From the IMG/VR virus record IMGVR_UViG_3300032435_000379, positions 1 to 58,134 of that record: a DNA stretch of 58,134 nt, one strand, 5' to 3'. The notes beneath the pieces were generated by a model, which saw only the letters and a program-made list of their open reading frames with translations, did not search any database and was not told where the DNA came from. The stretch comes from a virus. The position numbers were made by a program, and so were the translations under genes. Position 1 is the stretch's first letter. Each line of letters opens with the position of its first letter. This document shows positions 15,914-45,383 of this stretch, piece after piece.

Positions 15914-16339
15914 ATGATAATATTAAAACAAGAAATTACAGAACACAATAGAAATGCTACTTCAGTAGACGATTTTTATTATAGAGGAACTGAATTTGAG
16001 CACAGCGGTGGCACAGGTATCCGTTCATTAGCTATGCAGTATCTTCGAGACAGGAAAATTATAGATAGAAGACTTATCTTAAAGAACAATGGCAATACCC
16101 TAGAAATTACAACTATGTTCGTAAACAAACAGTATTACTTAGAATTTTTACAAGATGATTTACAAAAAGAAGCAATGCAATTTTTTACACAGCGTCAATG
16201 GGAAACAAAGACTGAAACTTACGAGGCACAAGACGAACTTAGTATACTAGCAAATGCACATAGAAACATTATTGATAGTTTTAAAAATATGTCTTTAGAA
16301 CAAATAGTAGAACGAATTAAACAACTACAAGGCAAATAA
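15914..16339 (+). CDS. hypothetical protein
   Basis: 141 residues, charged, no Cys. Blocks: NRNATSVDDFYYRGTEFEHSGGTGIRSLAMQYLRD in the N-terminal half, a beta pair LILKNNGNTLEITTMFVNKQYYLEFL, then helices. No domain recognised. It is the first gene of the accessory island and lies 1 nt from the sulfotransferase gene. No clear ribosome-binding site upstream. Confidence 0.5.
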   Translation: MIILKQEITEHNRNATSVDDFYYRGTEFEHSGGTGIRSLAMQYLRDRKIIDRRLILKNNGNTLEITTMFVNKQYYLEFLQDDLQKEAMQFFTQRQWETKTETYEAQDELSILANAHRNIIDSFKNMSLEQIVERIKQLQGK

Positions 16340-16340
16340 A

Positions 16341-17087
16341 ATGAATAAATTTCTTATAACTGGTATACCGCGAAGTGGAACAACTATAATTGTCAAGACA
16401 TTAGCTAAATTAAATGATGTCGAAGTATACAATGACCAGGATGGTTTTGGAGAACCGTTTAAAATAGTTAACAAAAAATTAGATTTAAATCCATATTTAC
16501 GTCTAACAGCAGTTGAAGATAAATGTAATTCAAAATATTTTGGATTTAAATGTTTCCCCGGCGACTTATTAGATATTAATCAATTAAATGAACAACGTAA
16601 TTATAAAACATTTGCAATTATAAGAAAAGATATTTGGAAGGCTTTATTCAGTTATTGTGTTGCTAAAACAAAATTTGTCAGAGATAGTACAGACATATTT
16701 AAACATAGTTCAACATTACACACACAGCGTCCTTTACAAATTTATATCGATGACTGGCAAAGTCCACTAAATCAAATGATAAGACATTCTTATTTTTGGA
16801 GAGTAAAATCGTGTTATGAATTTGAAACACAGTGGAAAAATACAGATATAATTTATTTTGAAGATTTAATCAAACCAAATGCAAGCTTCGAGTGTTTAAA
16901 TGAGTACTTTGGACAAGAAATAATTTTCAATTTAGATTACGACGATAGTCATGACACCGAGTCGTATTACGCTAACTTTAGTCCAGAAGTTTTATCTAAA
17001 TTGTCTAAACATATGTTAAGTACGATAGTTCTTCCATATGACTGTCCTGACTATATTAAACAGTCTATATATAAATTTATAAAATAA
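16341..17087 (+). CDS. sulfotransferase-family protein
   Basis: 248 residues. The N-terminal P-loop-like GIPRSGTT (8-15) is the 5'-phosphosulfate-binding motif of PAPS-dependent sulfotransferases. Downstream, FAIIRKDIWKALFSYC (about 96-111) resembles the 3'-phosphate-binding RDP..S segment, with Lys/Asp instead of Asp/Pro. It would move sulfate from PAPS to a hydroxyl or amine of a glycan, lipid or peptide. No PAPS-making gene is seen, so the donor would come from the host. The first such activity in the island, next to desaturase and glycosyltransferase genes, suggests modification of a surface or lipid product. Confidence 0.75.
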   Translation: MNKFLITGIPRSGTTIIVKTLAKLNDVEVYNDQDGFGEPFKIVNKKLDLNPYLRLTAVEDKCNSKYFGFKCFPGDLLDINQLNEQRNYKTFAIIRKDIWKALFSYCVAKTKFVRDSTDIFKHSSTLHTQRPLQIYIDDWQSPLNQMIRHSYFWRVKSCYEFETQWKNTDIIYFEDLIKPNASFECLNEYFGQEIIFNLDYDDSHDTESYYANFSPEVLSKLSKHMLSTIVLPYDCPDYIKQSIYKFIK

Positions 17088-17090
17088 TAC

Positions 17091-17119
17091 TTGACAATAT
17101 ATTGCAGATCAAGTATAAT
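17091..17119 (+). promoter_or_regulatory. perfect sigma70-type promoter before panD, implying a leaderless mRNA
   Basis: TTGACA at 17091-17096 and TATAAT at 17114-17119, spacer 17 nt: both hexamers consensus. The ATG of panD starts at 17126, just 6 nt after the -10, where transcription itself should begin. There is no Shine-Dalgarno sequence, so the mRNA is likely leaderless. Confidence 0.8.
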
Positions 17120-17125
17120 AAATGT

Positions 17126-17476
17126 ATGAAAGAATACATACACGGTAAAATACATAATATAAGCGTAACTGCTAAATCAATTAACTATCATGGTAGCGTA
17201 ACTGTTTGCTCGTATCTGTTAGAACAAGCAGGTATAGACCACTATCAAAAAGTAGATATTGTAAATCTACATAATGGACTTAGATGGACTACATATACTG
17301 TCCCAGGTCCTTTAGGATCATTTGAACTAAATGGTGGTGGCGCTAGGTTAGGTGAAATTGGCGATAAATGTGTAGTTATCGCATACGAGATGAAAGAGCA
17401 ATTCGTTGGTTCAAAGGTAATTTTTTGTACTACCTACAACGGAGTAGAAGAAGTTATTGACTACCCTTTGCTTTAA
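17126..17476 (+). CDS. panD: aspartate 1-decarboxylase (pyruvoyl enzyme PanD)
   Basis: 116 residues, near the family's ~125. It matches PanD through most of its length: KIHNISVTAKSINYHGSVTV contains the Gly23-Ser24 pair where the proenzyme cuts itself to form the pyruvoyl group. Lys8, TY at 56-57 (catalytic Tyr), and LNGGGARLGEIGDKCVVIAY (the NGAAA..GD motif) follow. PanD makes beta-alanine from aspartate, feeding pantothenate/CoA, or here possibly a beta-alanine unit in the product of the island. Its 3' end overlaps the convergent desaturase gene by 23 nt. It has a strong private promoter. Confidence 0.85.
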   Translation: MKEYIHGKIHNISVTAKSINYHGSVTVCSYLLEQAGIDHYQKVDIVNLHNGLRWTTYTVPGPLGSFELNGGGARLGEIGDKCVVIAYEMKEQFVGSKVIFCTTYNGVEEVIDYPLL

Positions 17477-18212
17477 TAAACGGTAAAAAGATTACACTAG
17501 GGTCAAATTCGTTTTTTGAAGCAAAACTATAATTGCTAGGAGTGTTGTGATGATTATTATGTAATGCTTGTCCCCATGTAAGCAATCCTAATAGTTTAAG
17601 ATTATAAGAATTATCTGTAGTTTCATGACTTCTATAACCAAACCACCCACTGTGGCAACTAATATTAACAATTGCTTCTTGATGGAAACTCCATGCTGCT
17701 GGTACTATCCAAAACCATAAAGTAAAGGTAGGAACAGTTAACAGTCCTACTACTAATACGCTCCAAATAATAAAAATATAATATTTGTTTAAGAATAGAT
17801 GAAATGAATTTTTATATATGTCTTTGACATGTCTAGGATTTATGTTATCTATACTTTTAGAATGAAGCCATCCAATGTACGCATGAAACAATCCGTCTTT
17901 GGGACTATGCGGATCGCCCTTAGCGTCTGCATGTTTGTGATGCATGCCTCTATGAACACCCGCCCACCATATTGGTGTTCCTTGAGCACATAATGTTGCT
18001 AATACTAATAAAGGTTTTTCTAACCAAGGTTTTAGTTCTATTGATTTGTGAGATACGTACCTATGTAATATAGTTGCGGATCCTAATCCGCAAAATGTAA
18101 TCCATCCTAGTAGTAAGTAAATCCAGTTAATTTCTGTAAAAAATATTGCAAATAGTGCAACTAACTGCACGACATAAAATACAAAAAATAAACTACTATT
18201 TTTCTTTGACAT
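17454..18212 (-). CDS. membrane fatty-acid desaturase (acyl-CoA delta-9 type)
   Basis: 252 residues with the three His boxes of the di-iron desaturases: H50RYVSH55 (HX4H), H87RGMHH92 (HX3HH), and a C-terminal HNNHH. GDPHSPKDG after box two is a family hallmark. Four hydrophobic segments fit the membrane topology. It would insert a double bond into an acyl chain in the host inner membrane. The start overlaps the stop of the radical SAM gene (TAATG), so the two are co-translated. The end overlaps panD on the other strand. A second desaturase lies at 26323-27075. Confidence 0.85.
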   Translation of the reverse strand: MSKKNSSLFFVFYVVQLVALFAIFFTEINWIYLLLGWITFCGLGSATILHRYVSHKSIELKPWLEKPLLVLATLCAQGTPIWWAGVHRGMHHKHADAKGDPHSPKDGLFHAYIGWLHSKSIDNINPRHVKDIYKNSFHLFLNKYYIFIIWSVLVVGLLTVPTFTLWFWIVPAAWSFHQEAIVNISCHSGWFGYRSHETTDNSYNLKLLGLLTWGQALHNNHHNTPSNYSFASKNEFDPSVIFLPFIKAKGSQ

Positions 18213-19039
18213 TAGTATCCACCTTCGTTGTCTTTGATGTGTTGTAAAAACGGAACAACGTCAAATTGTTCAGTCATTCTTCCTCTTATAGAATTAGTGT
18301 CTTCGTCGAACCCGTCAGACACTCCGTTCCAATTAGTTAAATTTATTCTAAATCCTTTATGCTTTATAGCATAACTATATTGGTTATCTTCTAAAGTTCT
18401 AATATTTTCAATTTTTAATTTTTCACAAACTAAGTTCTTAAGTTCTGTAAATTTATAAGTATCGTTGGTCATGTACCGACCAACCTGTCCAATGTTCCTA
18501 TATTCTATACTTGTACCAGACTTTACATTTCTCTCTTTTAAATAATTAAATATTTTTTCTATTAGATGTTCGTTAAGACCTTTAACAATAATACAACCAA
18601 TTGACAATCTTAAATTTAGATCAATTACATTATTAAGTGCTTTCATTTTTCCTTTAGCACATTTAGCAAGATCAGTTATTTCATATACACTGTCTTCGTC
18701 AAACCCAGTCATACTTAAATAAACAGTTTTTAATCCTGCATCTTTTAATAGATTTAGATATGCTTTGCTTGCTATTTTTAATCCGTTTGTCGCAATACTA
18801 GTACGATGTCCTTTTTCAACAGCATAAGCAATAATTTTATCCAAGTCGGGATGAAGTGTAGGTTCACCGCCTATAAATCTAAATTCAGTTGGATAATCAA
18901 ATTTATCAATAAAGGAAAACATTTTTTCTTTATCTATATCTGGATAAAGTCTATTGGGAAGATAACAGTTAGCACATTCCATATTACATCTATGAACAAT
19001 ATCGCAGTATACTGATCTATATTTTAAATTAGTTATCAA
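18212..19039 (-). CDS. radical SAM protein, TTG start
   Basis: 275 residues. The cluster motif is C18-NME-C22-AN-C25, followed by FRFIGGEPTLHPDL (the GGEP SAM-contact motif) and SIATNGLKI. The start is TTG at 19039, chosen because AAAGGTG lies 6 nt upstream and no ATG fits. No C-terminal Cys cluster, so it has only the SAM [4Fe-4S] site, unlike SPASM enzymes. The reaction is unknown. It is co-translated with a desaturase and lies directly behind a 20-residue open frame with its own -10 box, which could be a substrate peptide. Confidence 0.8.
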   Translation of the reverse strand: MITNLKYRSVYCDIVHRCNMECANCYLPNRLYPDIDKEKMFSFIDKFDYPTEFRFIGGEPTLHPDLDKIIAYAVEKGHRTSIATNGLKIASKAYLNLLKDAGLKTVYLSMTGFDEDSVYEITDLAKCAKGKMKALNNVIDLNLRLSIGCIIVKGLNEHLIEKIFNYLKERNVKSGTSIEYRNIGQVGRYMTNDTYKFTELKNLVCEKLKIENIRTLEDNQYSYAIKHKGFRINLTNWNGVSDGFDEDTNSIRGRMTEQFDVVPFLQHIKDNEGGY

Positions 19040-19048
19040 TTTGCACCT

Positions 19049-19111
19049 TTAATAATTTAACTGATCTTTATCATCATATCTTAGTTCTGGAATTTCAAAA
19101 AAAGTTTCCAT
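19049..19111 (-). CDS. possible 20-aa peptide upstream of a radical SAM gene
   Basis: A short frame METFFEIPELRYDDKDQLNY that ends 9 nt before the TTG of the radical SAM gene. A perfect -10 (TATAAT) lies exactly 6 nt before its ATG, the layout seen at panD and at the 32183 radical SAM gene. The frame is also open for about 9 codons upstream without a start, so it may instead be the leftover tail of a deleted gene. It is acidic and aromatic. No homologue known to me. Confidence 0.35.
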   Translation of the reverse strand: METFFEIPELRYDDKDQLNY

Positions 19112-19117
19112 AGGATC

Positions 19118-19123
19118 ATTATA
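19118..19123 (-). promoter_or_regulatory. possible -10 element (TATAAT) for the 18212-19111 unit
   Basis: TATAAT on the minus strand, 6 nt before the ATG of the 20-aa frame. The hexamer at the proper -35 distance (CATAAC) is poor, so promoter strength is uncertain. It falls within the short frame that continues upstream, so a chance match is possible. Confidence 0.35.
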
Positions 19124-19185
19124 CGCCTTTTTGATTATATGTTATGATAAGTATTTAGTAATCATGAAAAGAGGTGTTAGCAGTT

Positions 19186-20430
19186 ATGAAACAAAAAATA
19201 CTAGTTCCGAATCAAGGCATGCCTAATCAATTTTTTTTAAAAAGTTGTAGAGATCGCGGCATAGAATTAGATATTATTGTTGATTTAAGTTACGTGCTCC
19301 TTACTGACGATGTGTTAAAACACGAACAAGTACTAGGTAATAAAATTGTTTTAAATGAAAAATTAAACAAACTTGTTATAACAGATAAAATTAAAGAACA
19401 CTATCAAGACACACAGTTAGATTATATCTACCCTAGTTGGTTTGATTTTCGAATTATGGCTATGGCGCACATAAACGAAAAACTAAACATACCGGGACTA
19501 GGCCTTGATGCTGCGTTAAAGATTTTTGACAAATTAACGTATCAAACTATTCTAGAAAAAGAAGGAATAACGCTACCTAAAATTATTTCATGCTTAGATC
19601 CATATAGTGAGCAATATTTTTACAACAATGCCGTGTTTCCTCTAATTGCCAAACCAGTAAAAGGTACAGGTAGTTTAGGTGTAAAAGTATTACAAAGTAC
19701 TAAAGAAGCAACTGACTTTTTTAAAGATTACGATACTCCGTTTAACTCTTTTTGCGAGAAAGGACAAACCGGATACAAGCACTACGACTATCATTGTTTA
19801 GGTAGTTGCTATATACTACAGGAATATATAGACGGTGATCTAGTGAGCGTGTCAGGGCATGTAATAAACAACAAAGTAAATGTAGACCTAGTTTATGATA
19901 TAAAAAGTTCAGAGCTTCCGTATCGAGCGGAAATAGGATTTACGTATCCAAGCAAACACAATAAAGAAAAATTAACTACTATTATTAAAAAAATAATAAA
20001 AACGTTGGAGATAGATAACAGTCCCTTTATGATGGATTTTATTTACAAAGATACTACATTTTATTTGATAGACTTTTCTGCGAGGTTTAGTACTAGTACA
20101 CAATATATTATGAACTATTTAGGCGAAAAAGATTATGCGTTTAACGTTGTAAATAAAATTTTAAACAATGTAGATTTTGATATTGATTTGCAAAACTGTA
20201 TCAGTATAAGACACTTGCCTATTGAAAAAGGTAAAATCAAGTATATTAACATAGATACTACCGAATGTGTAACAGCACAGTTGCCAAAAACGGGATCCCA
20301 GCACTATAGTTCAAGGATAGATGCTTACGCAGGAAACAAAGGATTTATAGTTGCAGAATCTAACGACTTATTGTCTTTAGAAGAAAAAGTTAATAGGATA
20401 CTAAAAACATTGGAGGTAGAGTATGTTTAA
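19186..20430 (+). CDS. ATP-grasp ligase
   Basis: 414 residues from the ATG at 19186, with AGAGGTG 9 nt upstream. The ATP-grasp fold shows in FPLIAKPVKGTGSLGVKVL (K156 and the Gly-rich lid, about 151-169), LQEYIDGDLVSVSGHV (purine-facing E and strand), and MMDFIYKDTTFYLIDFSARF (metal-binding acidic/Asn-equivalent strand). Such enzymes join a carboxylate to an amine via acyl phosphate, for example in dipeptides or amino-sugar linkages. Together with the overlapping GNAT-like gene it suggests amide bond formation on a small metabolite. The substrate is not readable. Confidence 0.75.
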   Translation: MKQKILVPNQGMPNQFFLKSCRDRGIELDIIVDLSYVLLTDDVLKHEQVLGNKIVLNEKLNKLVITDKIKEHYQDTQLDYIYPSWFDFRIMAMAHINEKLNIPGLGLDAALKIFDKLTYQTILEKEGITLPKIISCLDPYSEQYFYNNAVFPLIAKPVKGTGSLGVKVLQSTKEATDFFKDYDTPFNSFCEKGQTGYKHYDYHCLGSCYILQEYIDGDLVSVSGHVINNKVNVDLVYDIKSSELPYRAEIGFTYPSKHNKEKLTTIIKKIIKTLEIDNSPFMMDFIYKDTTFYLIDFSARFSTSTQYIMNYLGEKDYAFNVVNKILNNVDFDIDLQNCISIRHLPIEKGKIKYINIDTTECVTAQLPKTGSQHYSSRIDAYAGNKGFIVAESNDLLSLEEKVNRILKTLEVEYV

Positions 20431-20992
20431 GTTAAAAGTGTTAGACAAGTCGCATTTACTCGACATATTAAAATTAAACAACGATAGTAAAAAAGTGTAT
20501 GGTAGTACTAAAACTTCCTTGTACAATCGCGAATACGAAAACTGGATAATCGAAATTCTAAATTTTAATAATAAAGAGTCTGAGATACTAGGAATATTTA
20601 ATGAAGGAAACGAATTAATACAGTATGCGTTATATTATCACATAAGTACATGGCCTGCTGTTGTAGTAGACCATTGGCGTAGCTCAACTGCTCACAAACA
20701 TAAAGGTGTATTAGCAGCAACAGAATGGACTAAAATGTTTGCTGAATACATAGCAAAAAAAGACATATTTGTTTGGTACATTGTTGTTGAAAAAGATATG
20801 TGGGATAGATACACTACGCTACAAAAAGATCGATTCAACAAAGAACCTCCAAATTATAGATTTTTATTAGAAGAAGTTCCGGCAGGTGAAAGAAGCAAGT
20901 TTTTATCGTTTAATACATACTTATTAAAAAATCAAACATATGATAAAGCCATGTATGTATTTCAAATGGTAAATAAAGATAAATATTACTAG
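20423..20992 (+). CDS. GNAT-like protein (uncertain)
   Basis: 189 residues, overlapping the ATP-grasp gene by 8 nt. It begins like a GNAT acyltransferase (FKLKVLDKSHLLDILKLNND) and has a strand IQYALYYHISTWPAVVVDHW followed by a helix, which is where the acetyl-CoA loop would lie. The Q/RxxGxG/A motif is not clear (STAHKHKGVLAA). Coupled to the ATP-grasp gene, it probably acts in the same step or the next one. Alternative: a GNAT fold without acyl transfer. Confidence 0.4.
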   Translation: MFKLKVLDKSHLLDILKLNNDSKKVYGSTKTSLYNREYENWIIEILNFNNKESEILGIFNEGNELIQYALYYHISTWPAVVVDHWRSSTAHKHKGVLAATEWTKMFAEYIAKKDIFVWYIVVEKDMWDRYTTLQKDRFNKEPPNYRFLLEEVPAGERSKFLSFNTYLLKNQTYDKAMYVFQMVNKDKYY

Positions 20993-21001
20993 GAGATAAT
21001 T

Positions 21002-21412
21002 ATGCAAAAACATACTATAAAAGTTGAAATACCGACAACAGTAACTACCCACTTACAATGTCAGATCGCAGTATTAGACATGCTAGGCGAACAAGGCGGT
21101 AAAGACTTCACTAATCTTATTATTAAATATAAACACAATGGAGATATTTGGTTCTATAACTTAGATATCCAAGCCGAAGGTGATCAAAAATTTATGTATG
21201 CAACACGAGTCTTTGATTCAGCAAAAGCTAAAGAATCCTTTGTCACCGAAGCTGCTGAGTATTTTAGCGGTATTGGTGCAACAGTAGTAAGTGACGAAGC
21301 AATAACGTTCGAAGCGTTTGCCGCATATGCTGCTGACAAAAATGAATCTATAGGTATTCCGGCTAAGTTTGCGCCGCCTGGTACGGAGCCACATCCAGAG
21401 GAATTGGAGTAA
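21002..21412 (+). CDS. hypothetical protein
   Basis: 136 residues, acidic, with one Cys. A beta-rich first half (HTIKVEIPTTVTTHLQCQIAV...GDIWFYNLDIQAEGDQKFMYATRVF), then an Ala-rich helix and a loose tail ending PPGTEPHPEELE. AGGAGATAATT precedes the ATG. Its last 50 nt overlap the 3' end of the convergent PhyH gene. No family recognised. Confidence 0.5.
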   Translation: MQKHTIKVEIPTTVTTHLQCQIAVLDMLGEQGGKDFTNLIIKYKHNGDIWFYNLDIQAEGDQKFMYATRVFDSAKAKESFVTEAAEYFSGIGATVVSDEAITFEAFAAYAADKNESIGIPAKFAPPGTEPHPEELE

Positions 21413-22112
21413 GAACAATATAGTTGGGCCTAGTAGGCTGTGTGATTGCGTTATTTGTTTTATTATAACAAACGAATAATACATTCCTATCTACTTCACT
21501 AGTATTACGCCCGCTGTAGTGCAATGTATTTGCATGCATACATATTACGTCTCCTGCCTTGCCAGTCAACTGTATCGCACTACAATTAGTCTTAGACACC
21601 ATATCGTCGTCAAGTATTCCTTGCGATTCATCAGCACTATGCTTTATGGTCCACTTAGAGTCGTTAATTTTTGGTACCGGTAAGTTTTGACTTTTTTCTA
21701 AAACAGTTAACGGACCATTGTTTTTTGTCATATCATCAAGTAAAAACAATACGCTGATAGCATCAGGATTGTTCATTCCATCAAAATTTTTCCAATATGT
21801 GTAGTCACTATGCCAAGCATATTCGCCGCCAGTTTGTGCTTTTTTATAATTAATATGACATTGGTGAATGTATATGTCTTGTCCTAATATTTCTTTAACA
21901 AAATCAATTACATTGTTATTATAGATAAACTCATTTATTGTCTTGCTCTTCCAATGCGGCGCAAATAAACTTCTAATTGTATTGTTGTCTTCTATAATGT
22001 AAGTTTCATCTAATGGTTCGTTTTCTAAACGGATAGCTTCTTTTTTTAATTCCGTTGCATCAAATACCTCTTTCAAAATTAAATATCCGGTTTGTAAATA
22101 TCCGTTGATCAT
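21363..22112 (-). CDS. phytanoyl-CoA dioxygenase (PhyH)-type 2OG/Fe(II) oxygenase
   Basis: 249 residues. The metal site is H101-S-D103 in YAWHSDYTYW, with the distal His in MHANTLHYSGRN and an Arg in RNTSEVDRNVLFV. The pattern GYLILKEVFD at the start and W.SD.TYW...D.VSVLFLLDDMTKNNGPL place it in the PhyH/ectoine hydroxylase group. It would hydroxylate a substrate with O2 and 2-oxoglutarate. Overlaps the PP-loop gene start by 4 nt (ATGA), so the two form a unit; it may hydroxylate the product of that ligase. Confidence 0.82.
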   Translation of the reverse strand: MINGYLQTGYLILKEVFDATELKKEAIRLENEPLDETYIIEDNNTIRSLFAPHWKSKTINEFIYNNNVIDFVKEILGQDIYIHQCHINYKKAQTGGEYAWHSDYTYWKNFDGMNNPDAISVLFLLDDMTKNNGPLTVLEKSQNLPVPKINDSKWTIKHSADESQGILDDDMVSKTNCSAIQLTGKAGDVICMHANTLHYSGRNTSEVDRNVLFVCYNKTNNAITQPTRPNYIVLTPIPLDVAPYQAAQT

Positions 22113-22975
22113 TTTTCTACCTCTAATAGTTTTGTTAATTTGTGTGCTTCTAATGTAAAGACACCATTATGATATTTTTTCAAGTCATCAAATTTTTTAA
22201 GAACTTCATTCATTAACGGTGTTTTCTCAATTTCTTCCCATCCTGTATATTTTGGACGATCATTAAATGTATAATGTTTTGAATATATTATAGGCTTACT
22301 AGTTCGTGTACTTAGCTTGCCCGGGTGCTTATTGGCTATAAGTTCCCGCACTCTAGGCTCTTGTAAAAAGCTCAATGTCATTTCAGGAGTGTATCTTAAA
22401 AAATCTGGAGTACCGTCTATGCTTTCATTAGCATACCATTTCATGTAGCTATTTACTCGTTCAGTTTCTTCATACGTCCATATTGAATCAAAGTTTTTAA
22501 GGTAAGGCTCGCCATTTGCCATAACAATAGTCCCATCTAATTGTAAAATTCCATACATGATGCTAGGTATTTGGTATGCGCAACACTTTACACTATTAGC
22601 AATGTCGAATATTTTTTTAGAACTTATAAATTTTTCAATATCAACATTAACTACTATAGGTGTAATATTGTGTAATTTACAATAATCAAACGCAAATGCA
22701 GTATCGTGTGCGTTATAATGTCCGTAACTTATTATGGCAGTCTTAAAAGGAACTTTTGCTGTCTTAAAAACATTTAACATAAATTCACTGTCAAGTCCTC
22801 CACTAAACATTAATGTTATAGGAGAAGACGAATTTTCATAGAGTATTTGAGCTGCAAAAACAGCTTCGTCATGAAAGTTTTTTATATCACTACGGGTACA
22901 TTTTTTAATGTTTACTGACCAACTATCACCTGTTCCGCTAGTTGTAAAATAATCATTATACGTTGTTGCTGTCAT
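22109..22975 (-). CDS. PP-loop ATPase, asparagine synthetase C-terminal domain-like
   Basis: 288 residues. The PP-loop SGGLDS (58-63) lies in SPITLMFSGGLDSEFMLNVF, typical of ATP pyrophosphatases that adenylate a carboxylate or carbonyl. Its context (AAQILYENSS before it, and a two-helix insertion after it) resembles the synthetase domain of asparagine synthetase, with no glutaminase half. The nitrogen donor would be free ammonia or a partner. An SD, GAGGTAAG, precedes the ATG. It opens the divergent pair with the + strand oxygenase at 22996. Confidence 0.75.
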   Translation of the reverse strand: MTATTYNDYFTTSGTGDSWSVNIKKCTRSDIKNFHDEAVFAAQILYENSSSPITLMFSGGLDSEFMLNVFKTAKVPFKTAIISYGHYNAHDTAFAFDYCKLHNITPIVVNVDIEKFISSKKIFDIANSVKCCAYQIPSIMYGILQLDGTIVMANGEPYLKNFDSIWTYEETERVNSYMKWYANESIDGTPDFLRYTPEMTLSFLQEPRVRELIANKHPGKLSTRTSKPIIYSKHYTFNDRPKYTGWEEIEKTPLMNEVLKKFDDLKKYHNGVFTLEAHKLTKLLEVEK

Positions 22976-22983
22976 ACTTACCT

Positions 22984-22991
22984 CATAAATA
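22984..22991 (+). promoter_or_regulatory. T4-late-type promoter box (CATAAATA) in a 20-nt divergent gap
   Basis: CATAAATA ends 4 nt before the ATG at 22996, so initiation would be at or within the start codon and the mRNA would lack a leader. The whole gap between two divergent genes is only 20 nt. Confidence 0.45.
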
Positions 22992-39175: not shown

Positions 39176-39923
39176 TTTTCATAAACCTAGTATAGTTGGA
39201 AAGAAATAATTCACCTTCAAATTTAACATCTGACATAGGAGCTGACTTACTAAATGTATCTAAGTCAGCACTACAATTTATATGATCTTCTATTTCAAAG
39301 TAATTGTTGCTTTGTAATACTACTAATTTGCCATCCGGAATCTTTGAATACCATTCTTCGAAATTTTCTATGTGTTCGCAACTTGTGTTAATAATAGTAT
39401 CAGGCGTATCAGCTAAAGGACACGTTGTTCCGTCAGCTCTAATTACTTCGTAGTTTTCGAACTCATAATTAATATCCATGATATCTTTTGTAGATGATTT
39501 AAATTGCCAGTTATCCTTAACCCACGGGTTATTAAATGTTTCAGCAATACTTCGGCAACTAGGATCAATGTCAAAACTTCTAACTTTATTTACTTTAATG
39601 TTACTTTCAAATAACATTGTAGCAAGTGTAGCATACCATCCTGCACACAAGAATACTGTGCCTAAATCAACTTTAAGTTCACTAAGTTCTTTTACTAACC
39701 ATAGTTTGCTTTCTAGTTGTCCTCGGCTAAAACAGTCTGCATTAAAACTGTCATCGTCCTTATACTTACGCATACCTTCAATTAATTGACTGCCTGTTAA
39801 TCCTTGTATAATTCTAAACAATGCAAACTTATCTTGACTTAATAAGGTTTTTCTAAGATCACTAAAGATAGAGTTATCCGGGTATAGTAATTCTAATCTA
39901 TCTAGTATTTCAGCAATCTGCAT
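39162..39923 (-). CDS. class I SAM-dependent methyltransferase-like protein
   Basis: 253 residues. Motif I-like TVFLCAGWYATL (89-100) followed by VRSFDIDPSCRSIAETF (D118, D120, the ribose-binding acidic residue). Then TIINTSCEHIENFEEWYSKIP and KLVVLQSNNYFEIEDHIN, which recalls methyltransferases with a CEH...W motif. It might also be a nucleoside-binding Rossmann enzyme. Overlaps the glycosyltransferase-like gene by 14 nt; it may methylate a sugar or peptide. Confidence 0.6.
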   Translation of the reverse strand: MQIAEILDRLELLYPDNSIFSDLRKTLLSQDKFALFRIIQGLTGSQLIEGMRKYKDDDSFNADCFSRGQLESKLWLVKELSELKVDLGTVFLCAGWYATLATMLFESNIKVNKVRSFDIDPSCRSIAETFNNPWVKDNWQFKSSTKDIMDINYEFENYEVIRADGTTCPLADTPDTIINTSCEHIENFEEWYSKIPDGKLVVLQSNNYFEIEDHINCSADLDTFSKSAPMSDVKFEGELFLSNYTRFMKIGYK

Positions 39924-40581
39924 TGTATTTCTCCTTAAGCCAGTTAAAGTCGTTTATCAACCCAAGATCAGCCCCGCTAGAAAGCCCGTACTTCCTGCCA
40001 GCACAAGCACCTTTAATAGCATATTCGCCGAAGGGAGCATCTCCTCCCACTGTTGTCCATATTTTGAGTCTTTCATTTGTTTCTTCCTCGTTTTGTCTAT
40101 CTATTATTTTACTTGCAAGTTTAGTACATTCTCTAAATGCACTACGCCATGTACTAAATTCATCTACATTAAATGCAGTGATATTACTAACTTGCTCCAT
40201 AGGAATAAATTTAGTACTGATGCTTGTGGTCATATCTGGTTTACTAGTGTCCATGTGTAATGTTGCTATTCTAGGAAGCAATTTTACACCACCGTATCCG
40301 TATTCTAGATCATTAATAGGATTGCGGCTACGCCATACATGTACAGCATCTTTATTAGTTCGGTTTGGAACATAAGAAAAATCAAAGTCATCTACAATAA
40401 GTGCATCGGCGTCAACAATCCATACCATATAAGTAAATGCTTTTTTTGCTGCTTCAATATGTGCTTGATGTATTCCTTTAACTCCGTGAACACGCATAGC
40501 CCACGGCACTTGTGCTTTTAGGTTGTTCCAGTTTACATCAGCTTGGATTTCGTTATAACTTATAAAAATTACATCATACAT
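39910..40581 (-). CDS. GT-A-like glycosyltransferase (paralogue of 41923 product)
   Basis: 223 residues from the ATG at 40581, which overlaps the radical SAM stop. DAD motif (57-59) in MVWIVDADALIVDDF would bind the metal and nucleotide-sugar. Opening YDVIFISYNEIQADVNWNNL and PWAMRVHGVKGIHQAH match the 41923 protein (YDIIYLSYDEPNAEKNY; PWAKRVHGVEGSDAAH), so the two are paralogues. Both also share a WR..FRE segment. Acceptor unknown. Confidence 0.65.
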   Translation of the reverse strand: MYDVIFISYNEIQADVNWNNLKAQVPWAMRVHGVKGIHQAHIEAAKKAFTYMVWIVDADALIVDDFDFSYVPNRTNKDAVHVWRSRNPINDLEYGYGGVKLLPRIATLHMDTSKPDMTTSISTKFIPMEQVSNITAFNVDEFSTWRSAFRECTKLASKIIDRQNEEETNERLKIWTTVGGDAPFGEYAIKGACAGRKYGLSSGADLGLINDFNWLKEKYNADC

Positions 40582-41926
40582 TGCTGTTCTCACATAGCTT
40601 GTAAAATTCTTTGTACTCTGGAAATACTTCTAAAAAGTTTTTATTTCTACGACGATCGTACTCATTTACAAATTGCACAAATCCAAATCTGTCTGCACTT
40701 ACATTAATTTTCTTTTTGAAACGAGCAAGGCAATCGTTGTATATTCTTTCTAATTTAAAAATCTCATCCATTTTAAATCGCTTGTTCTTTTTTCTTCGTT
40801 CGATCATAAAATCTATAGTAGTCTTTAGATATGTTTCAATCATTTCCTCAGTTGCAATTTTAATGTCAAGGAACTCTGGGTGCCTAACATATGCAAAATC
40901 CATAACTACTCGTTCGCCAAAGTCTCGTTTTAATTTTTCTATATGACAAACAAACTTGTGGATTGTGGGCAAACTTAAAATATTAAATGCACTCATAAAA
41001 CAAACCTTAATATCAGTAGTTTGTTCCAAAAAGTATTTAATATTTGAATCAAATAATTTCCAATCCATTCCGTCTCTGCTGTATTCGGCTTGTCCTTTAA
41101 CACTTTCTGCACTTGTATATAAACTAAATGATTTAATAGATTTTGAAACTTCTAATTCTTTTATAGAATTAACAAATTCTTTCCATAATAATTTTGGAGG
41201 ACATGCATTACTGTTTATAGCAAAATCTAAATTAGGCTGAGGATTGTTAATTAAATATTGAATAACCCGTTTAGTGTGTTTACTTAATAACGGTTCGCCG
41301 CCTGTAATTCTGAATACGTGCATATGCTGTACTGCTTCAGGAAACCATTTCCAGAATGCTTCAATATACGGATTTTCTTCTCTTTCAAGAATAGGAATTT
41401 CTGTTTCCTTAATACTATTATAATGGTTGTTTTTTAATATGTAAGCACCATTTGCTTTTATTTCATCAGTCCATTTGCTACTAAATGCCGGGCCGCAGTA
41501 TGTACATTTAAAATTACAAACGTTTGAGAAACTAACTTCTACATATCTTGGATATATATTTTCGTCTCCTGTTGACGTGATTATTTTCTTTTTATCAGTC
41601 TGGCTCCATGTTTCAGAACTTTTAGTAATTCTATCACTAAAGTTATTAGTATTATCTTCAATTCGCCAACAATAATCACATTCGGCAGGACGCTTGCCTG
41701 CAAGCATTTCTTTTCTAATTTCTTTTTTAAAATTAGTGTTATGTAATGCACTCGGATTAACTGCAAGTTCATCTAATGGAATTTTATGGGCACCTACATG
41801 ATGACAACTATGTGTTATGCCAGATCCAAGATGCATAGTTACTTGTGTCCATTTAGCCAGGCAAAATCCACAGCCAACAGCATCTAATTCTTTTTTAACT
41901 TGTGGTAAGGAATCTAAATTAATCAT
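40574..41926 (-). CDS. twitch-type radical SAM protein (paralogue D)
   Basis: 450 residues. N-terminal Cys: C19-x2-C22 (GCGFCLAKW), C41 (THSCHHVG, where the others have CC), C83-x2-C86 (ECDYCWRIED). SAM cluster C137-NFK-C141-TY-C144 in FSNVCNFKCTYCGPA; RITGGEPLL. It keeps LAGKRPAEC..C and SSKW but has only one Cys in the middle pair, so the auxiliary cluster may bind differently. Sits between the two paralogous glycosyltransferase genes. Confidence 0.8.
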   Translation of the reverse strand: MINLDSLPQVKKELDAVGCGFCLAKWTQVTMHLGSGITHSCHHVGAHKIPLDELAVNPSALHNTNFKKEIRKEMLAGKRPAECDYCWRIEDNTNNFSDRITKSSETWSQTDKKKIITSTGDENIYPRYVEVSFSNVCNFKCTYCGPAFSSKWTDEIKANGAYILKNNHYNSIKETEIPILEREENPYIEAFWKWFPEAVQHMHVFRITGGEPLLSKHTKRVIQYLINNPQPNLDFAINSNACPPKLLWKEFVNSIKELEVSKSIKSFSLYTSAESVKGQAEYSRDGMDWKLFDSNIKYFLEQTTDIKVCFMSAFNILSLPTIHKFVCHIEKLKRDFGERVVMDFAYVRHPEFLDIKIATEEMIETYLKTTIDFMIERRKKNKRFKMDEIFKLERIYNDCLARFKKKINVSADRFGFVQFVNEYDRRRNKNFLEVFPEYKEFYKLCENSNV

Positions 41927-42834
41927 TCTGGATCAATTACAAATTGTTGTGCAGGATTTCTACTAGGATTTTGATATACTATTTTAAAGAATTTACTTTG
42001 TTGAGCACTTAATGGAGTTTCAGCAATTGGTATTTTTAACTCATTAATAAGTTTAATACCATACGTGTCTGTTTTGTGTTTAATATCTTCGATGCCTGCA
42101 AAGGAAGTAGTCCATAAGTCATTTAAATATTTAAAGTCTCTAACTTGAACAAAGTCCCAATCTGTACACATTGTCATATACAGACCCGCTCTTGCTCCTA
42201 ATATAGCCCAGTCACCGTTTTGTACATCTGCACCTATCATTAACCAAATCCAAAGTCGGTGTAAGTTTTTCCAATGACCTTTTAATAACTGTTCTTTTGT
42301 AGGCTTTGCTCCTTGATCGAGTGCCATTTTAACACCTTCGCGGAATCCAGCACGCCATGCTTGTTGTGCTGTAGTGTTGTTATGTACATCAGAGTAACAA
42401 CTATTTTGTTGAATGTACTGTAAGTCCCAACAGAAGTCTACTTGAGCTGCTATATTATCAGCATCTGCATTTTCGTGTGTACGCATGTTAAGAACATATT
42501 CTTTGGGCCAGCATTTGAGACCGCCGTTGCCGTACATCAATCCGTTAATTTCGTTTTTGCCACACCAACTAATAACACTAGATTCTAAATCACTGCCCTG
42601 CGGAATATCTAATATTTGTTCTAAAAAGCCAGGGCGTACAATATTGTCACCATCAACAGTAATAAAACGATCTGTTTCGCTTAATTCTGCACATGCTTTG
42701 TGTGCAGCATCTGAACCTTCTACACCGTGTACACGTTTTGCCCACGGTGCTTTAGTAAGCAAGTCAGCATAGTTTTTTTCTGCATTGGGTTCGTCATATG
42801 ACAGATAGATAATATCGTAATCAATAATTCTCAT
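41923..42834 (-). CDS. GT-A-like glycosyltransferase
   Basis: 303 residues. DGD motif (61-63) in RFITVDGDNIVRPGF. A second segment ILGARAGLYMTMC resembles the catalytic helix region. Paralogue of the 39910 product in the first half, but 80 residues longer. Overlaps radical SAM D (ATGA). A sugar-transfer role is likely, with the acceptor unknown. Confidence 0.65.
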   Translation of the reverse strand: MRIIDYDIIYLSYDEPNAEKNYADLLTKAPWAKRVHGVEGSDAAHKACAELSETDRFITVDGDNIVRPGFLEQILDIPQGSDLESSVISWCGKNEINGLMYGNGGLKCWPKEYVLNMRTHENADADNIAAQVDFCWDLQYIQQNSCYSDVHNNTTAQQAWRAGFREGVKMALDQGAKPTKEQLLKGHWKNLHRLWIWLMIGADVQNGDWAILGARAGLYMTMCTDWDFVQVRDFKYLNDLWTTSFAGIEDIKHKTDTYGIKLINELKIPIAETPLSAQQSKFFKIVYQNPSRNPAQQFVIDPE

Positions 42835-43392
42835 TTATTGCTCCTGTACATTATGTATGTGTTTTACATGATGCTCGCTACACAAAAGGCTTACACGCTG
42901 TTTACACACTTCTACATTATAATTTTTTAATGTAACCGTATCGCATAATGCAAGTGTTTTTAAATTAACTTGCAATGTATCTAATAGTATAAATCGATTG
43001 CTAGGATCAACTACATAGTACTCCTTAATATAATTTTCTCCTTGTGCAAACATTGCACATACTATATCATCCATTGTACTTGTAGCTGTCCAAGTACAGT
43101 TAAACAAGTCTTGATTTAAAATAATTGCATTATGATCTATTACTTGCTTAACAATAATACCCCTAGACTGTGCTCGGTCTTCTGCCTTGTCAATGTGTTT
43201 GAGTACAATGTGTATCTTACCTTTTATTTTTGCATTTTCAATTACAATGTAATCTAATATTTGCTTGATGCCGTTTGAAAAGTCAGTATATGTTTGTAAA
43301 TCAACTTCAATATAATATTCGCCAAAAGAATCGTCTGTTATATTAGCAACTGCTGTGATGTTACCGTCGTCGTTATAATAAATGTAATACAT
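42835..43392 (-). CDS. hypothetical protein
   Basis: 185 residues, beta-rich and acidic. Opening MYYIYYNDDGNITAVANITDD; a VKQVIDHNAIIL and IVCAMFAQGENYIKEYYVV in the middle; C-terminal VEVCKQRVSLLCSEHHVKHIH. No family recognised. Stop and start overlap the genes on either side (TAATG), so it is expressed with the glycosyltransferases. Confidence 0.5.
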   Translation of the reverse strand: MYYIYYNDDGNITAVANITDDSFGEYYIEVDLQTYTDFSNGIKQILDYIVIENAKIKGKIHIVLKHIDKAEDRAQSRGIIVKQVIDHNAIILNQDLFNCTWTATSTMDDIVCAMFAQGENYIKEYYVVDPSNRFILLDTLQVNLKTLALCDTVTLKNYNVEVCKQRVSLLCSEHHVKHIHNVQEQ

Positions 43393-44198
43393 TACACACG
43401 CTCCTCAAGCCATCCTAACATGTCTACTGTTAAAAATTCATCTTCAACATAATGCAATACGCCTGATTGTTTATATCCACCTATATAAAGTGTATCATTG
43501 CCAAAATCTATAGGTAACACATCAGTCCATTTACTCGGTACATGACTCCAATTTTGTACTTGAGCTTTCATATGAGTAAATGTTAGATTATTATTAATTT
43601 TAGAGTCTAAAATCGTTAGTGCAACTGCGGCACTGAGATCTACACTATTCCAATTTTGCATGTCTTTAGGAGCATATTGTTGATAAAATACTTTCCAGTT
43701 TGTCATTATTACATCTAATAATTTAAAAAAATTATGAGCTTCGTCGCATTTTGAAAATTTATACATGCCGGTGTATATATTAGGTAAATTGTTTGAATCA
43801 AATGTTTTTCTATAGTATCTATTAGTTACTAATTCGTTTCTATATGTAGTTACTTTATTTGTAAAAATAATAGGATCAATATTTTCCCATATTGGAGTAA
43901 TATTATCTAATATTAACATATCAGCATCAAATACTAGGGTATTTCTATAAGGAGTTAAATGGTAGATTTTCCAACGATTATCTATTTTCCAATCAGAGTT
44001 TTTTGCTAAATCGCCCCAAGGTATAGAAATAACTTGATCAAATACATCTTTATATGCTGTTGGAATTACTTCATCAGTTATAATACTAATATTTGTGCCA
44101 GGTGCGGTTGCAAGAATACTTAATGCCAATGCATATGCTTGTTGTACATAATCTGTTTTACTATTATTTTGTGCAAGTACACATACACCATTACTCAT
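43392..44198 (-). CDS. GT8-like glycosyltransferase
   Basis: 268 residues from the ATG at 44198 (AAGGAG 8 nt upstream, ATG overlaps the previous stop). DAD motif D91-A-D93 in RNTLVFDADMLILDNI. The layout VCVLAQNN.....QAYALALSIL....ISIITDE is typical of GT8-type enzymes, which use UDP-sugars. It shares the opening and the DxD context with the 44191 product, so the two are paralogues in tandem. Confidence 0.62.
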   Translation of the reverse strand: MSNGVCVLAQNNSKTDYVQQAYALALSILATAPGTNISIITDEVIPTAYKDVFDQVISIPWGDLAKNSDWKIDNRWKIYHLTPYRNTLVFDADMLILDNITPIWENIDPIIFTNKVTTYRNELVTNRYYRKTFDSNNLPNIYTGMYKFSKCDEAHNFFKLLDVIMTNWKVFYQQYAPKDMQNWNSVDLSAAVALTILDSKINNNLTFTHMKAQVQNWSHVPSKWTDVLPIDFGNDTLYIGGYKQSGVLHYVEDEFLTVDMLGWLEERV

Positions 44199-45039
44199 TT
44201 GCAAACTCCTTGTCAATAAACGAGTTTAAGCTAAACTTATTCATAATGTGAACAGTTGCATCTGTAAATTTTACTGGAAGATAATCATATGACTTATGTG
44301 CAAGTAATTTAATAACGTTATTATTAACATCTATTAAAATATCGTTATCCGTTGATACCCACATATCACTAGGTAATTGTTTAGGCCACTCGGTGCTATT
44401 TTCAAATCCACGCATCATATGCATTGTAATACTGAATGCAAAATCGTTTCTAAATTTAGATTCAGTAATATCATATACTGTTCTATAATAATTGTAATTT
44501 TCTTTAATATGTTCTACTAAGTCAAATACTGTTTTTGCAGTATTGCTTTTTGTAAAATATAATATAGTAGCCCAATACATTGGAATAGTTTTATCACTTA
44601 CTCTATCAAAACTTAGCTCTGTGCCTTGATTAACTAAATTGTAATGATTTGCAATCATAAAATCTTCATTAGTATCAAAACATGCTAGTAACTTATCATT
44701 TGATACTAATAAATCAGTATCAATTACAATTGTTTTATCAAATACGCTTAACTCGTATACACTATTGCGAGAAGAGTTTTTCCATTCTAATTTTTTACTT
44801 GCATATAATCCGTCATTAAATGTTTTAACAGAATTATTAATAGGTGCAGCAATGTGTGATACAACATCAATATAATTTTTATAAAACGGGTATTCTGATT
44901 CAAGGTAATCAACTGTATCTGTAATCAGTTGTACAGGTAAGTTTAAATACTGTTTTACTCGCTTTGCACAATATACTGCTTGCTTTACATAATCAATACT
45001 GCTGTTGTTAAATGCAAAAAGTACAACACCTTGCTTCAT
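44191..45039 (-). CDS. GT8-like glycosyltransferase
   Basis: 282 residues. DTD motif D107-T-D109 in FDKTIVIDTDLLVSNDK. Opening GVVLFAFNNSSIDYVKQAVYCAKRVKQ...VQLITD matches the 43392 protein. No membrane segment, so it acts in the cytoplasm. It overlaps the 45036 gene (ATGA). Confidence 0.62.
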   Translation of the reverse strand: MKQGVVLFAFNNSSIDYVKQAVYCAKRVKQYLNLPVQLITDTVDYLESEYPFYKNYIDVVSHIAAPINNSVKTFNDGLYASKKLEWKNSSRNSVYELSVFDKTIVIDTDLLVSNDKLLACFDTNEDFMIANHYNLVNQGTELSFDRVSDKTIPMYWATILYFTKSNTAKTVFDLVEHIKENYNYYRTVYDITESKFRNDFAFSITMHMMRGFENSTEWPKQLPSDMWVSTDNDILIDVNNNVIKLLAHKSYDYLPVKFTDATVHIMNKFSLNSFIDKEFANE

Positions 45040-45383
45040 AAATCAACCAATCCTTGTACTGATCTATTTTTTTTAATTGTTTCGTAGTCAACGGCATATT
45101 TACGTGATGCAACTGCATAGACTCCTATTAGTTCTTTTGCAAATTCGTTAACATCAGGAATCATAAAAGGAATACTGTTATCATCTAGTACAACTGCACC
45201 ATCTGGAATTGTTTTTGACAACGTATAGACAAAATTAATTAGTTCTTGTGTAACAGTAAACTTATGGCCGTGAATATAATGCACAAGGTTTTCTTTATAC
45301 TGTGCAAGAAAAATACGTTTTTGGTTGTTTTGCGTTGCTAAAAAATTAGAAAACTCTAATGCTTTACTTAATCTTTCGTCCAT
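45036..45383 (-). CDS. small hypothetical protein, first gene of the long operon
   Basis: 115 residues, helical with blocks MDERLSKALEFSNFLATQNNQKRIFLAQYKENLVHYIHGHKF and VTQELINFVYTLSKTIPDGAVVLDDNSIPFMIPDVNEFAKELIGVYAVA. No recognised motif. GAGGAG about 9 nt upstream of the ATG. As promoter-proximal gene it may be a partner of the two glycosyltransferases after it. Confidence 0.55.
   Translation of the reverse strand: MDERLSKALEFSNFLATQNNQKRIFLAQYKENLVHYIHGHKFTVTQELINFVYTLSKTIPDGAVVLDDNSIPFMIPDVNEFAKELIGVYAVASRKYAVDYETIKKNRSVQGLVDL

What the first reader, a model, noticed from the sequence alone, without database searches (positions are those of the whole stretch)
15914..45383. A 29-kb biosynthesis-like island inside phage virion genes
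Between two virion regions lies a block with eight radical SAM enzymes, about ten 2OG/Fe(II)-fold proteins, two desaturases, PanD, ATP-grasp, PP-loop ATPase, sulfotransferase, two GNAT-like proteins, a nitroreductase-like protein, a methyltransferase and four glycosyltransferases (seen by motif). Such density of iron enzymes is known for natural-product clusters, not for phages. The overlapping gene ends suggest one coordinated pathway. Inference: the phage makes or remodels a modified peptide, glycan or lipid, perhaps on the virion or the infected host's surface.
Basis: partly seen in the sequence, partly recalled or inferred. Interest (0 to 1): 0.92.

Follow-up and report, generated by a model that had tools for sequence, protein, structure and literature searches.

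The report
Phage radical-SAM glycan-building gene island
A giant-phage DNA fragment carries a dense, intact set of unusual iron-dependent enzymes whose core recurs in a fixed gene order in many uncultured viruses and partly in Bdellovibrio-type bacterial chromosomes, and it most likely builds or decorates a surface sugar structure that is still unknown.

Summary
The enzyme island is real. Eight radical SAM (rSAM) proteins are confirmed, four of them NCBIfam N_Twi_rSAM, with PanD, two desaturases, ATP-grasp, four glycosyltransferases (two GT-A fold, two GT8-like), a methyltransferase and at least six 2OG-like proteins. No nitroreductase or second GNAT was found, and the left flank is mostly not virion.

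A conserved 73-aa ORF (P, 38954-39175) had been missed. The core recurs in order: GT-A (G), methyltransferase (M), P, rSAM B, N-twitch rSAM A, [2OG], rSAM C. Of 80 viral loci selected on P, 80 carry M, 80 G and 76 rSAM; of 88 random viral loci 0, 0 and 1. A-B-C also sits in Bdellovibrionota contigs, beside polysaccharide genes in 2 of 5 such loci sampled. The left third (PanD, ATP-grasp, PP-loop) is variable cargo.

Best reading: a host-recognition-type cluster that builds and tailors a surface glycoconjugate. Whether on cell or virion, and whether P is a substrate, is unresolved. rSAM arrays and glycosyltransferases in marine phages were reported before; I found no report of this module.

The parts
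45441..58132 (-). Tail/fibre-type region (46376, 47925, 49814 share N-terminal sequence; Collar domain in 49814; 52565 large virion-type protein; 45441 and 51925 without a named family), upstream of the core in the same orientation
45036..45383 (-). 115-aa protein 't', found with the GT8 pair in relatives
   Evidence: (10 of 80 viral loci); no Pfam match above cut-off
43392..45039 (-). GT pair B (43392-44216, 44191-45039): GT8/glycogenin-like, DxD
   Evidence: Paralogs; profile vs glycogenin E=3.6e-6; D97, D99, D193 invariant in 25 sequences
41923..42834 (-). g: GT-A glycosyltransferase, paralog of 39910
   Evidence: AlphaFold pLDDT 91, VIA Z 10.9 to GT-A enzymes; DxD invariant
40574..41926 (-). 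F: N-twitch radical SAM
   Evidence: NF033640 E=7e-93
39910..40593 (-). G: GT-A glycosyltransferase (core)
39162..39923 (-). M: class I SAM-dependent methyltransferase fold (core)
   Evidence: Model pLDDT 95; NodS Z 16.8
38954..39175 (-). P: conserved 73-aa ORF (TTG start), missed before; follows M
   Evidence: no Pfam match
38007..38957 (-). x: 316-aa protein of unknown family, present in all four relatives
36947..38014 (-). B: radical SAM with C-terminal Cys cluster (core)
   Evidence: 94-98% identical in relatives G002-G004
35523..36938 (-). A: N-twitch radical SAM (core)
   Evidence: NF033640 E=8e-127; tree
34661..35539 (-). 2OG-like protein with invariant HxD...H, between A and E
   Evidence: H122, D124, H266, K280 invariant in 12 sequences
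32333..34664 (-). E (33477-34664) and D (32333-33517): N-twitch radical SAMs
   Evidence: NF033640 E=2e-89 and 2e-120
31068..32183 (-). C: radical SAM (core, also in bacteria)
29647..31177 (-). Two 2OG-like proteins (30374-31177; 29647-30381, the latter proline-hydroxylase-like)
27079..29647 (-). Accessory run: 2OG-like 29153-29647, motif-only 2OG 28572-29228, GNAT 27927-28553, 2OG-like 27079-27930
24853..27075 (-). Desaturase 26323-27075 and B12-binding radical SAM 24853-26322
22963..24844 (.). 2OG-like: 24275-24844 (-), 23664-24278 (+), motif-only 22963-23667 (+)
17102..22975 (.). Variable cargo: PanD 17102-17476 (+), desaturase 17454-18212 (-), radical SAM 18212-19039 (-), ATP-grasp 19174-20430 (+), unknown 20423-20992 and 21002-21412 (+), PhyH 21363-22112 (-), PP-loop-like 22109-22975 (-)
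   Evidence: variable or rearranged in G003 and G004
16341..17087 (+). Possible sulfotransferase (motif; below cut-off); no match in G003 or G004
14545..15849 (+). Fibre-type protein with Mtd (major tropism determinant) N-terminal domain; left border of the island
   Evidence: PF18454 E=3e-11

Best explanation
This is a host-recognition-type island of a giant myophage. It encodes a real pathway that assembles and then heavily tailors a surface glycoconjugate. Read on the minus strand, it runs from tail-fibre-type genes into glycosyltransferases (GT8 pair, then GT-A pair), a methyltransferase (M), a small protein (P) and three core radical SAM enzymes (B, A, C), interleaved with 2OG-like oxygenases. 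Inferred working: the GTs build a short glycan on a carrier; M methylates it; A, B and C carry out radical C-H chemistry (such as epimerisation, dehydrogenation or C-C/C-S bond formation) on the sugars or on an attached group; the 2OG proteins hydroxylate. The variable cargo (PanD giving beta-alanine, ATP-grasp, GNAT, B12-rSAM methylation, desaturases, perhaps sulfation) supplies lineage-specific substituents. The product is most likely shown on the infected cell's envelope, changing the receptor and excluding competing phages. Shown here: the enzyme families, the fixed recurring core, constraint on sequence, adjacency to tail-type genes in the window, and a shared A-B-C core in Bdellovibrionota contigs. 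Inferred: that the product is a glycan, each chemical step, and the place of display.
For: Core linkage. P-selected viral loci: M 80/80, G 80/80, rSAM 76/80. M-selected: G 78/80, P 60/80, with P directly after M in 54 of these 60, rSAM 79/80; 11 of the 80 M-selected contigs are also in the A-selected set (my reading). Random viral loci: 0/88 for M, G and P, 1/88 for rSAM. A-selected: order M..B..A in 47 of 60 loci with at least 6 kb upstream of A. Two GT-A domains fused to M in 5 ORFs.
Folds. The methyltransferase's best-scoring structure is NodS (acts on a chitooligosaccharide, recalled), but other methyltransferases lie within one Z unit.
Tail-type genes on both sides in the window.
Bacterial relatives: in 9 of 12 loci listed, A, B and C lie within a few kb (L105 and L106 are near-copies), and 9 of 12 have G or M nearby. 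L107 has GT2 and FAD amine-oxidase genes and a sub-cut-off aminotransferase; L125 has Epimerase and Polysacc_synt_2; an N-twitch array without a close A (L121) has UDPGP.
Function kept: dN/dS 0.016-0.364 in the 42 of 43 comparisons that gave a value (pairs of at least 60% identity).
Precedent: GTs and rSAM cassettes in the pelagimyophage host-recognition cluster, read there as O-chain change (PMC7029224, passages).
Against: No carrier-loading enzyme, flippase, polymerase or nucleotide-sugar synthesis gene was identified in the island. Polysaccharide genes were seen at 2 of 5 A-B-C loci and 1 of 3 other N-twitch arrays, with only 1 to 8 neighbours scanned per locus; L106 (MoxR/DUF58, SppA), L127/128, L131, L123 and L129 showed none. 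Tail families of the window lie near A in a minority of A-selected loci (45441 family 8 of 80, 't' 10 of 80, GT8 13 of 80), though many loci are short. M is only 31-32% identical in G002 and G003 while A and B are 86-98%, so M and the GTs may act on varying acceptors. N-twitch profiles hit peptide-modifying SkfB slightly better than sugar-acting BlsE, both weakly, and 29647 resembles an amino-acid hydroxylase. P is unexplained. No product is known.
Confidence: 0.45

Rival explanations
1. P is a ribosomal precursor: B and A (SPASM/twitch-type rSAMs) cross-link or otherwise rework the 73-aa protein P, M methylates it and the GTs glycosylate it, giving a glycosylated RiPP. It would work like mycofactocin, where a small peptide, an rSAM, a glycosyltransferase and a methyltransferase make a glycosylated cofactor.
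For: Of 33 P hits outside the window and its near-copy, 29 have M just upstream and 30 have B within 1.5 kb downstream; P follows M in 54 of 60 M-selected loci that hold P. P carries conserved aromatic pairs (NWY, WY). B has weak NCBIfam matches to peptide-maturing rSAMs, including the mycofactocin family, far below cut-off. Mycofactocin is oligo-glycosylated by MftF (PMC7491314, title and start of abstract in the listing); its methyltransferase is recalled.
Against: P is conserved along its whole length with no leader/core split. It was not found in the chromosomal Bdellovibrionota A-B-C loci (the one hit in that set, L118, is probably a phage contig). No RRE or PqqD-type Pfam match. P is in only 29 of 80 A-selected loci.
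Confidence: 0.2
2. The pathway decorates the virion itself: tail fibres or capsid are glycosylated and further modified, as in chlorovirus capsid glycosylation.
For: In the window and its relatives the core follows tail-type genes on the same strand. The best Foldseek PDB row for the GT is the PBCV-1 capsid glycosyltransferase, E=7e-4.
Against: That row is weak and other GT-A enzymes score higher with VIA. The Bdellovibrionota A-B-C loci show no hit to the window's tail profiles (L116, which does, looks like a phage contig).
Confidence: 0.17
3. It makes a diffusible secondary metabolite (toxin, siderophore or signal), as proposed for some jumbo cyanophage clusters.
For: PanD, ATP-grasp ligase, GNAT, B12-rSAM, desaturases and 2OG enzymes are typical natural-product tools. 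A parallel cyanophage prediction exists (PMC7824862, passages).
Against: Most of these sit in the variable part. No exporter, NRPS or PKS was identified in the island by Pfam. The recurring part is GT + methyltransferase + rSAM.
Confidence: 0.12
4. DNA or RNA hypermodification, with glycosyltransferases acting on modified bases.
For: Phage GTs and oxygenases can act on DNA (recalled); QueE and GTP cyclohydrolase I lie about 8 kb to the left.
Against: The A-B-C core, often with a GT, is found in Bdellovibrionota contigs, in places beside polysaccharide genes. Whether the deazaguanine genes go with the island cannot be told: the contigs of G002-G004 end before that region.
Confidence: 0.05

Closest known systems
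Host recognition cluster of pelagimyophages (PMC7029224, passages read)
   Same: Large variable region next to tail fibres with several glycosyltransferases (GT8 among them) and radical SAM cassettes
   Different: Here a fixed G-M-P-B-A-C module is defined, with N-twitch rSAMs, a conserved 73-aa P and Bdellovibrionota relatives; the window phage resembles RaK2/PA5oct/Atu_ph07-type jumbo phages. I did not compare sequences with that paper's genomes
T4-like marine viral genome with 12 rSAM genes (TARA_ERS488813_N000010; PMC5332604, passages read)
   Same: High density of radical SAM genes in one marine phage
   Different: Discussed there as part of Fe-S cluster metabolism; the passages seen give no gene-order module with GT and methyltransferase
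Predicted 2OG/halogenase metabolite cluster of jumbo cyanophages such as S-SSM6a (PMC7824862, passages read)
   Same: Multi-gene biosynthetic cluster with 2OG oxygenases and methyltransferases in jumbo phages, proposed for capsule decoration or a metabolite
   Different: That core is carbamoyltransferase and halogenase; the term 'radical SAM' does not occur in that text (count 0 in the listing)
Mycofactocin cluster (mft)
   Same: Small protein + rSAM + glycosyltransferase + methyltransferase (partly recalled; PMC7491314 seen in a listing only)
   Different: P does not show a leader/core pattern, and the rSAM matches are far below cut-off
NCBIfam NF033640 N-twitch radical SAM family
   Same: A, D, E and F score 300-424 bits against a cut-off of 170
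   Different: No function is attached to the family in what I saw

Membership tests
NF033640 N-twitch radical SAM (A, D, E, F) | Whole-protein score over curated cut-off of 170 bits | tested here: met
   402.6 (D), 300.3 (E), 423.7 (A) and 311.8 (F) bits
NF033640 N-twitch radical SAM (A, D, E, F) | CxxxCxxC plus N-terminal Cys cluster | tested here: met
Class I SAM methyltransferase (M) | Rossmann methyltransferase fold | tested here: met
   VIA Z 16.8, 169 residues, rmsd 2.6; predicted model
GT-A glycosyltransferase (G, g) | GT-A fold and DxD | tested here: met
   Model of 41923: Z 10.9, 140 residues, rmsd 3.0; DxD invariant in 34 sequences including 39910
GT8 (43392, 44191) | Profile similarity to GT8 enzymes and DxD | tested here: met
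   Glycogenin E=3.6e-6 over profile positions 5-106; D97 and D99 invariant
2OG/Fe(II) oxygenases (ten proteins) | HxD/E...H triad with family-level similarity | tested here: inconclusive
   Six of ten supported at profile level, two by invariant triad, two by motif only; PDB profiles A11 and A12 gave no hit
Phage host recognition cluster | Variable region beside tail fibres with GTs | tested here: met
   In the window and relatives:
Phage host recognition cluster | Product changes the host O-chain or receptor | not testable with these tools
   No product known
RiPP cluster | Precursor with leader/core and a recognition element | tested here: inconclusive
   P found next to B, but conserved throughout; no Pfam match
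Single 29-kb operon | One strand, one recurring set | tested here: not met
   Strand changes in 15.9-24.3 kb; cargo varies between relatives

The most novel reading that the evidence does not exclude
Phages and Bdellovibrionota share an undescribed biosynthetic system (GT-A, methyltransferase, rSAMs B, A and C, plus the phage-specific small protein P) that makes a new class of radical-SAM-built glycoconjugate, in the phages possibly with P as a ribosomally made, glycosylated scaffold; phages moved it from Bdellovibrionota-like chromosomes and expanded it.
Probability: 0.25. Interest if true: 0.9.

Novelty: new variant of a known kind. Interest (0 to 1): 0.7.

Why it matters
Among 50,697 deposited phage records, A finds only two Vibrio phages, at 27% identity over half its length, E three records and the GT none. 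If the module remakes the cell surface by radical chemistry, it is a new way for a virus to control who else can infect its host, and a source of unexplored carbohydrate- or peptide-modifying radical enzymes. The link to Bdellovibrionota (N-twitch rSAM over the cut-off in 41 of 144 genomes drawn from that phylum, 37 of 140 without the seeds, against 2 of 299 in the phylum of G014, 1 of 298 without its seed) is a testable lead on origin or host.

Tried and rejected
Considered and rejected: one 29-kb operon (strand changes, variable left third). PanD as part of the recurring core (0 of 80 loci; close-relative scan found only G001 and G004). A nitroreductase (no Pfam match in 36 island proteins). 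Sequence-only identification of G or M in the PDB (no hits), replaced by fold prediction. PDB profiles of two further 2OG-like families gave nothing. The viral-structure search for the GT gave two uncharacterised uncultured-phage proteins as clear hits. Vibrio phage K566 as a carrier of the core: several rSAMs but no G or M match in the stretch examined, so only a distant relative. Literature searches: rSAM with jumbo phage and glycosyltransferase (0 papers), Bdellovibrio with rSAM and glycosyltransferase (1 paper, on Bacillus pumilus), host recognition cluster with rSAM, viral glycan terms, phage-encoded/LPS terms (only the listing seen apart from PMC7029224), 'twitch domain-containing radical SAM' (none on phages by title). 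They cover open-licence PMC only. First counts of M and G with iterated profiles could drift because of fused ORFs; I redid them with profiles from curated alignments and quote those for M, G and P. rSAM counts are from iterated rSAM profiles.

Limits: the window is a linear fragment. Viral loci are the best 80 per scan, so near relatives are over-represented. The random set is 88 of the 128 stretches found (40 were not printed), with shorter loci (762 kb in all). At E<=1e-3 the N-twitch family also rings in all 14 control genomes, none over its cut-off; copy numbers are lower bounds. The tree is a quick one, midpoint-rooted, with a long-branch warning. PHROGs was run on 20 of 36 island proteins.

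Full report
What the window is. The window is a whole IMG/VR virus record, linear, 58,134 bases. The large protein at 52565-58132 (about a third covered, 30% identity) and the HNH/VWA-type protein at 11739-13019 have their best deposited matches in jumbo myophages such as PA5oct, RaK2 and Atu_ph07. It is therefore most likely a fragment of a large myophage genome. A near-identical longer contig (G001, 87 kb) and three diverged relatives (G002, G003, G004) exist. The contig of G002 ends inside the core; those of G003 and G004 reach past the left border of the island, to genes matching about 11.7 and 9.8 kb of the window, but not to the far left flank.

The observation. All eight radical SAM proteins are real: Pfam matches (36947 just under the cut-off there), all over the family cut-off, each with CxxxCxxC. 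A ninth, QueE, lies outside the island (6667-7539). Four of the eight (32333, 33477, 35523, 40574) are paralogs and belong to NCBIfam NF033640, N-twitch radical SAM, at E 2e-89 to 8e-127. 24853 is a B12-binding radical SAM. PanD, two desaturases, ATP-grasp, one GNAT and PhyH are confirmed by Pfam. The GT, methyltransferase and several 2OG calls needed more. 41923 models as GT-A (pLDDT 91, best Z 10.9 over 140 residues) and 39910 is its paralog. Pair 43392/44191 matches glycogenin. 39162 models as a class I methyltransferase (pLDDT 95, Z 16.8). Of ten 2OG claims, six are supported at profile level, two share a family with an invariant triad, and two rest on a motif. In the profile-profile test nine control proteins scored at most 1.9% against three reference 2OG profiles; the Pfam-confirmed PhyH protein scored 5% or less against the others, so the test misses distant subfamilies. 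The sulfotransferase and PP-loop calls stay below cut-offs; a nitroreductase and a second GNAT were not found.

Flanks. Right: 46376, 47925 and 49814 share N-terminal sequence, 49814 has a tail Collar domain, 52565 matches virion proteins; 45441 has no family, 51925 was not scanned. Left: 11 of 25 ORFs were scanned; named families are GTP cyclohydrolase I, QueE, 5'-3' exonuclease, an ATPase family and an HNH/VWA-type family; only 14545-15849, with an Mtd N-terminal domain, is fibre-like. The island thus lies between two receptor-binding-type loci rather than between two virion blocks.

Genes are intact and under constraint. The island is 98% coding, and 19 of 30 same-strand junctions overlap. 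dN/dS lies between 0.016 and 0.364 in the 42 of 43 comparisons that gave a value (pairs of at least 60% identity; 26 with G004 and 17 with G003, three of the 43 being tail-type genes; several dS values are near saturation).

Two parts. In the stretch from about 29.6 to 45.4 kb, the rSAMs A, B, C, D and E, x, 34661 and 29647 are 79-100% identical in whichever of G002-G004 cover them, whereas M is 31-32% and the GT8 pair 39-48% in G002 and G003, the GT-A pair 59-76%, and F has no close counterpart there (25%). Most tail-type genes beyond fall to 30-60% in G002 and G003 (51925: 77-82%). The left part (15.9-29.6 kb) is partly shared, rearranged or replaced: 15914, 16341, 20423 and 21002 have no match in G003 or G004, and ATP-grasp only 30-31%.

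A missed gene. Between M (39162) and x (38007) lies a 73-aa ORF, 38954-39175 minus, TTG start, here called P. A profile finds it in 29 of 80 A-selected viral loci and in the window and its four relatives. Of the 33 hits outside the window and G001, 29 have M just upstream and 30 have B within 1.5 kb downstream. It has no Pfam match.

The recurring module. Across these 80, best-match counts were B 75, M 64, C 62, D 59, GT-A 52, any of the window's 2OG families 30, GT8 13 in all (13 and 11 for its two members), 't' 10, tail family 45441 8, and PanD 0. The order G-M-(P)-B-A-(2OG)-C is visible along many loci, and in five ORFs the two GT-A domains and M are fused. Of 60 loci with at least 6 kb upstream of A, 55 have B upstream on the same strand, 50 have M, and 47 have M..B..A in order; ten lack B or M. 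Selecting instead on M: G in 78 of 80 and P in 60 of 80, any rSAM in 79 of 80. Selecting on P: M 80 of 80, G 80 of 80, rSAM 76 of 80. In 88 random viral loci (762 kb): M, G and P 0, one rSAM ORF.

Bacterial relatives. A scan of one genome for each of 84,980 species gave 74 stretches, 18 confirmed loci, 11 of them titled as Bdellovibrionota. By my count of the listed rows, N-twitch matches over the cut-off number 4 to 19 in seven seed Bdellovibrionota genomes and 10 to 14 in three large viral records; the 14 control genomes have none over it. In a phylum draw, 41 of 144 genomes (37 of 140 without the seeds) have strong matches, against 2 of 299 in the phylum of G014 (1 of 298 without its seed). 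In 9 of 12 loci listed A, B (over 330 bits) and C lie within a few kb, L105 and L106 being near-copies; L108, L115 and L125 lack a strong B or C. 9 of the 12 have G or M nearby. Some lie on contigs of 0.49 to 1.6 Mb. Selected neighbours (1 to 8 per locus) were scanned at eight loci. Of five A-B-C loci, two have sugar or polysaccharide genes: L107 (GT2, FAD amine oxidase, aminotransferase below cut-off) and L125 (Epimerase, Polysacc_synt_2); L106, L127/128 and L131 showed none. Of three N-twitch arrays without a close A, L121/122 has UDPGP and an Asp/Asn-hydroxylase-type 2OG gene, L123 and L129 showed none. In a quick, midpoint-rooted tree of 106 A-type proteins most Bdellovibrionota rows form a grade outside a main clade of 65 rows with full support, 60 of them viral; a second viral clade of 24 rows lies apart on a long branch. 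The bacterial-labelled rows inside the main clade (L103, L112, L114, L116, L118) may be phage contigs binned with bacteria; L116 carries tail-family relatives and L118 carries P.

Mechanism. What is shown: glycosyltransferases, a methyltransferase and three or more radical SAM enzymes occur as a linked unit, in the window next to fibre-type genes, under constraint. What is inferred: that the product is a surface glycoconjugate. The GTs would build it, M would methylate it, A, B and C would do radical chemistry, and the cargo would add substituents. Twitch and SPASM radical SAMs act on both sugars and peptides (recalled), and the weak PDB matches of the A/D profile include both kinds (SkfB, BlsE), so the substrate class is not settled by homology. 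The mycofactocin-like peptide reading stays open because of P.

What is known. Passages of PMC7029224 describe a host-recognition cluster with tail fibres, GTs and rSAM cassettes in pelagimyophages and suggest O-chain change. PMC5332604 notes 12 rSAM genes in one T4-like virus. PMC7824862 predicts a metabolite or capsule cluster in jumbo cyanophages. PMC7150976 reports rSAM and GT genes enriched in Tasman Sea viral contigs (passages). My searches found no description of the fixed module or of P; only open-licence PMC papers are covered, and most papers were seen as listings. I therefore rate it as a new variant of a known kind: phage surface-glycan islands, with an undescribed radical-SAM core.

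Noticed in passing
window 5978-6670 and 6667-7539 (+): GTP cyclohydrolase I next to QueE: part of a 7-deazaguanine pathway, perhaps for DNA or tRNA modification.
   Followed up: no
L116, L118, L112, L114, L103: Contigs filed as Bdellovibrionales, Gammaproteobacteria, Chloroflexi, Acidimicrobiaceae and Planctomycetota whose A protein falls inside the main viral clade; L116 holds tail-family relatives and L118 holds P, so at least these two are probably phage contigs binned into bacterial genomes.
   Followed up: partly
L121, L122 (G006:C1:738001-778000): A Bdellovibrionota contig with a run of about 13 genes labelled N-twitch radical SAM by profile, plus 2OG genes, one of Asp/Asn-hydroxylase type; function unknown.
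   Followed up: partly
L022 (Vibrio phage K566, 144829-185944): Several adjacent radical SAM genes about 6 kb from a gene annotated as PagP-like lipid A acylation protein, in a deposited Vibrio phage; a possible laboratory relative.
   Followed up: partly
window 38007-38957 (-): 316-aa protein x, 89-98% identical in G002-G004, with no known family; sits between P and B in the window and its relatives.
   Followed up: no
window 16001-24000: Lower G+C (0.30-0.34) than the left flank (0.37-0.41), matching the variable, perhaps more recently gained cargo.
   Followed up: no
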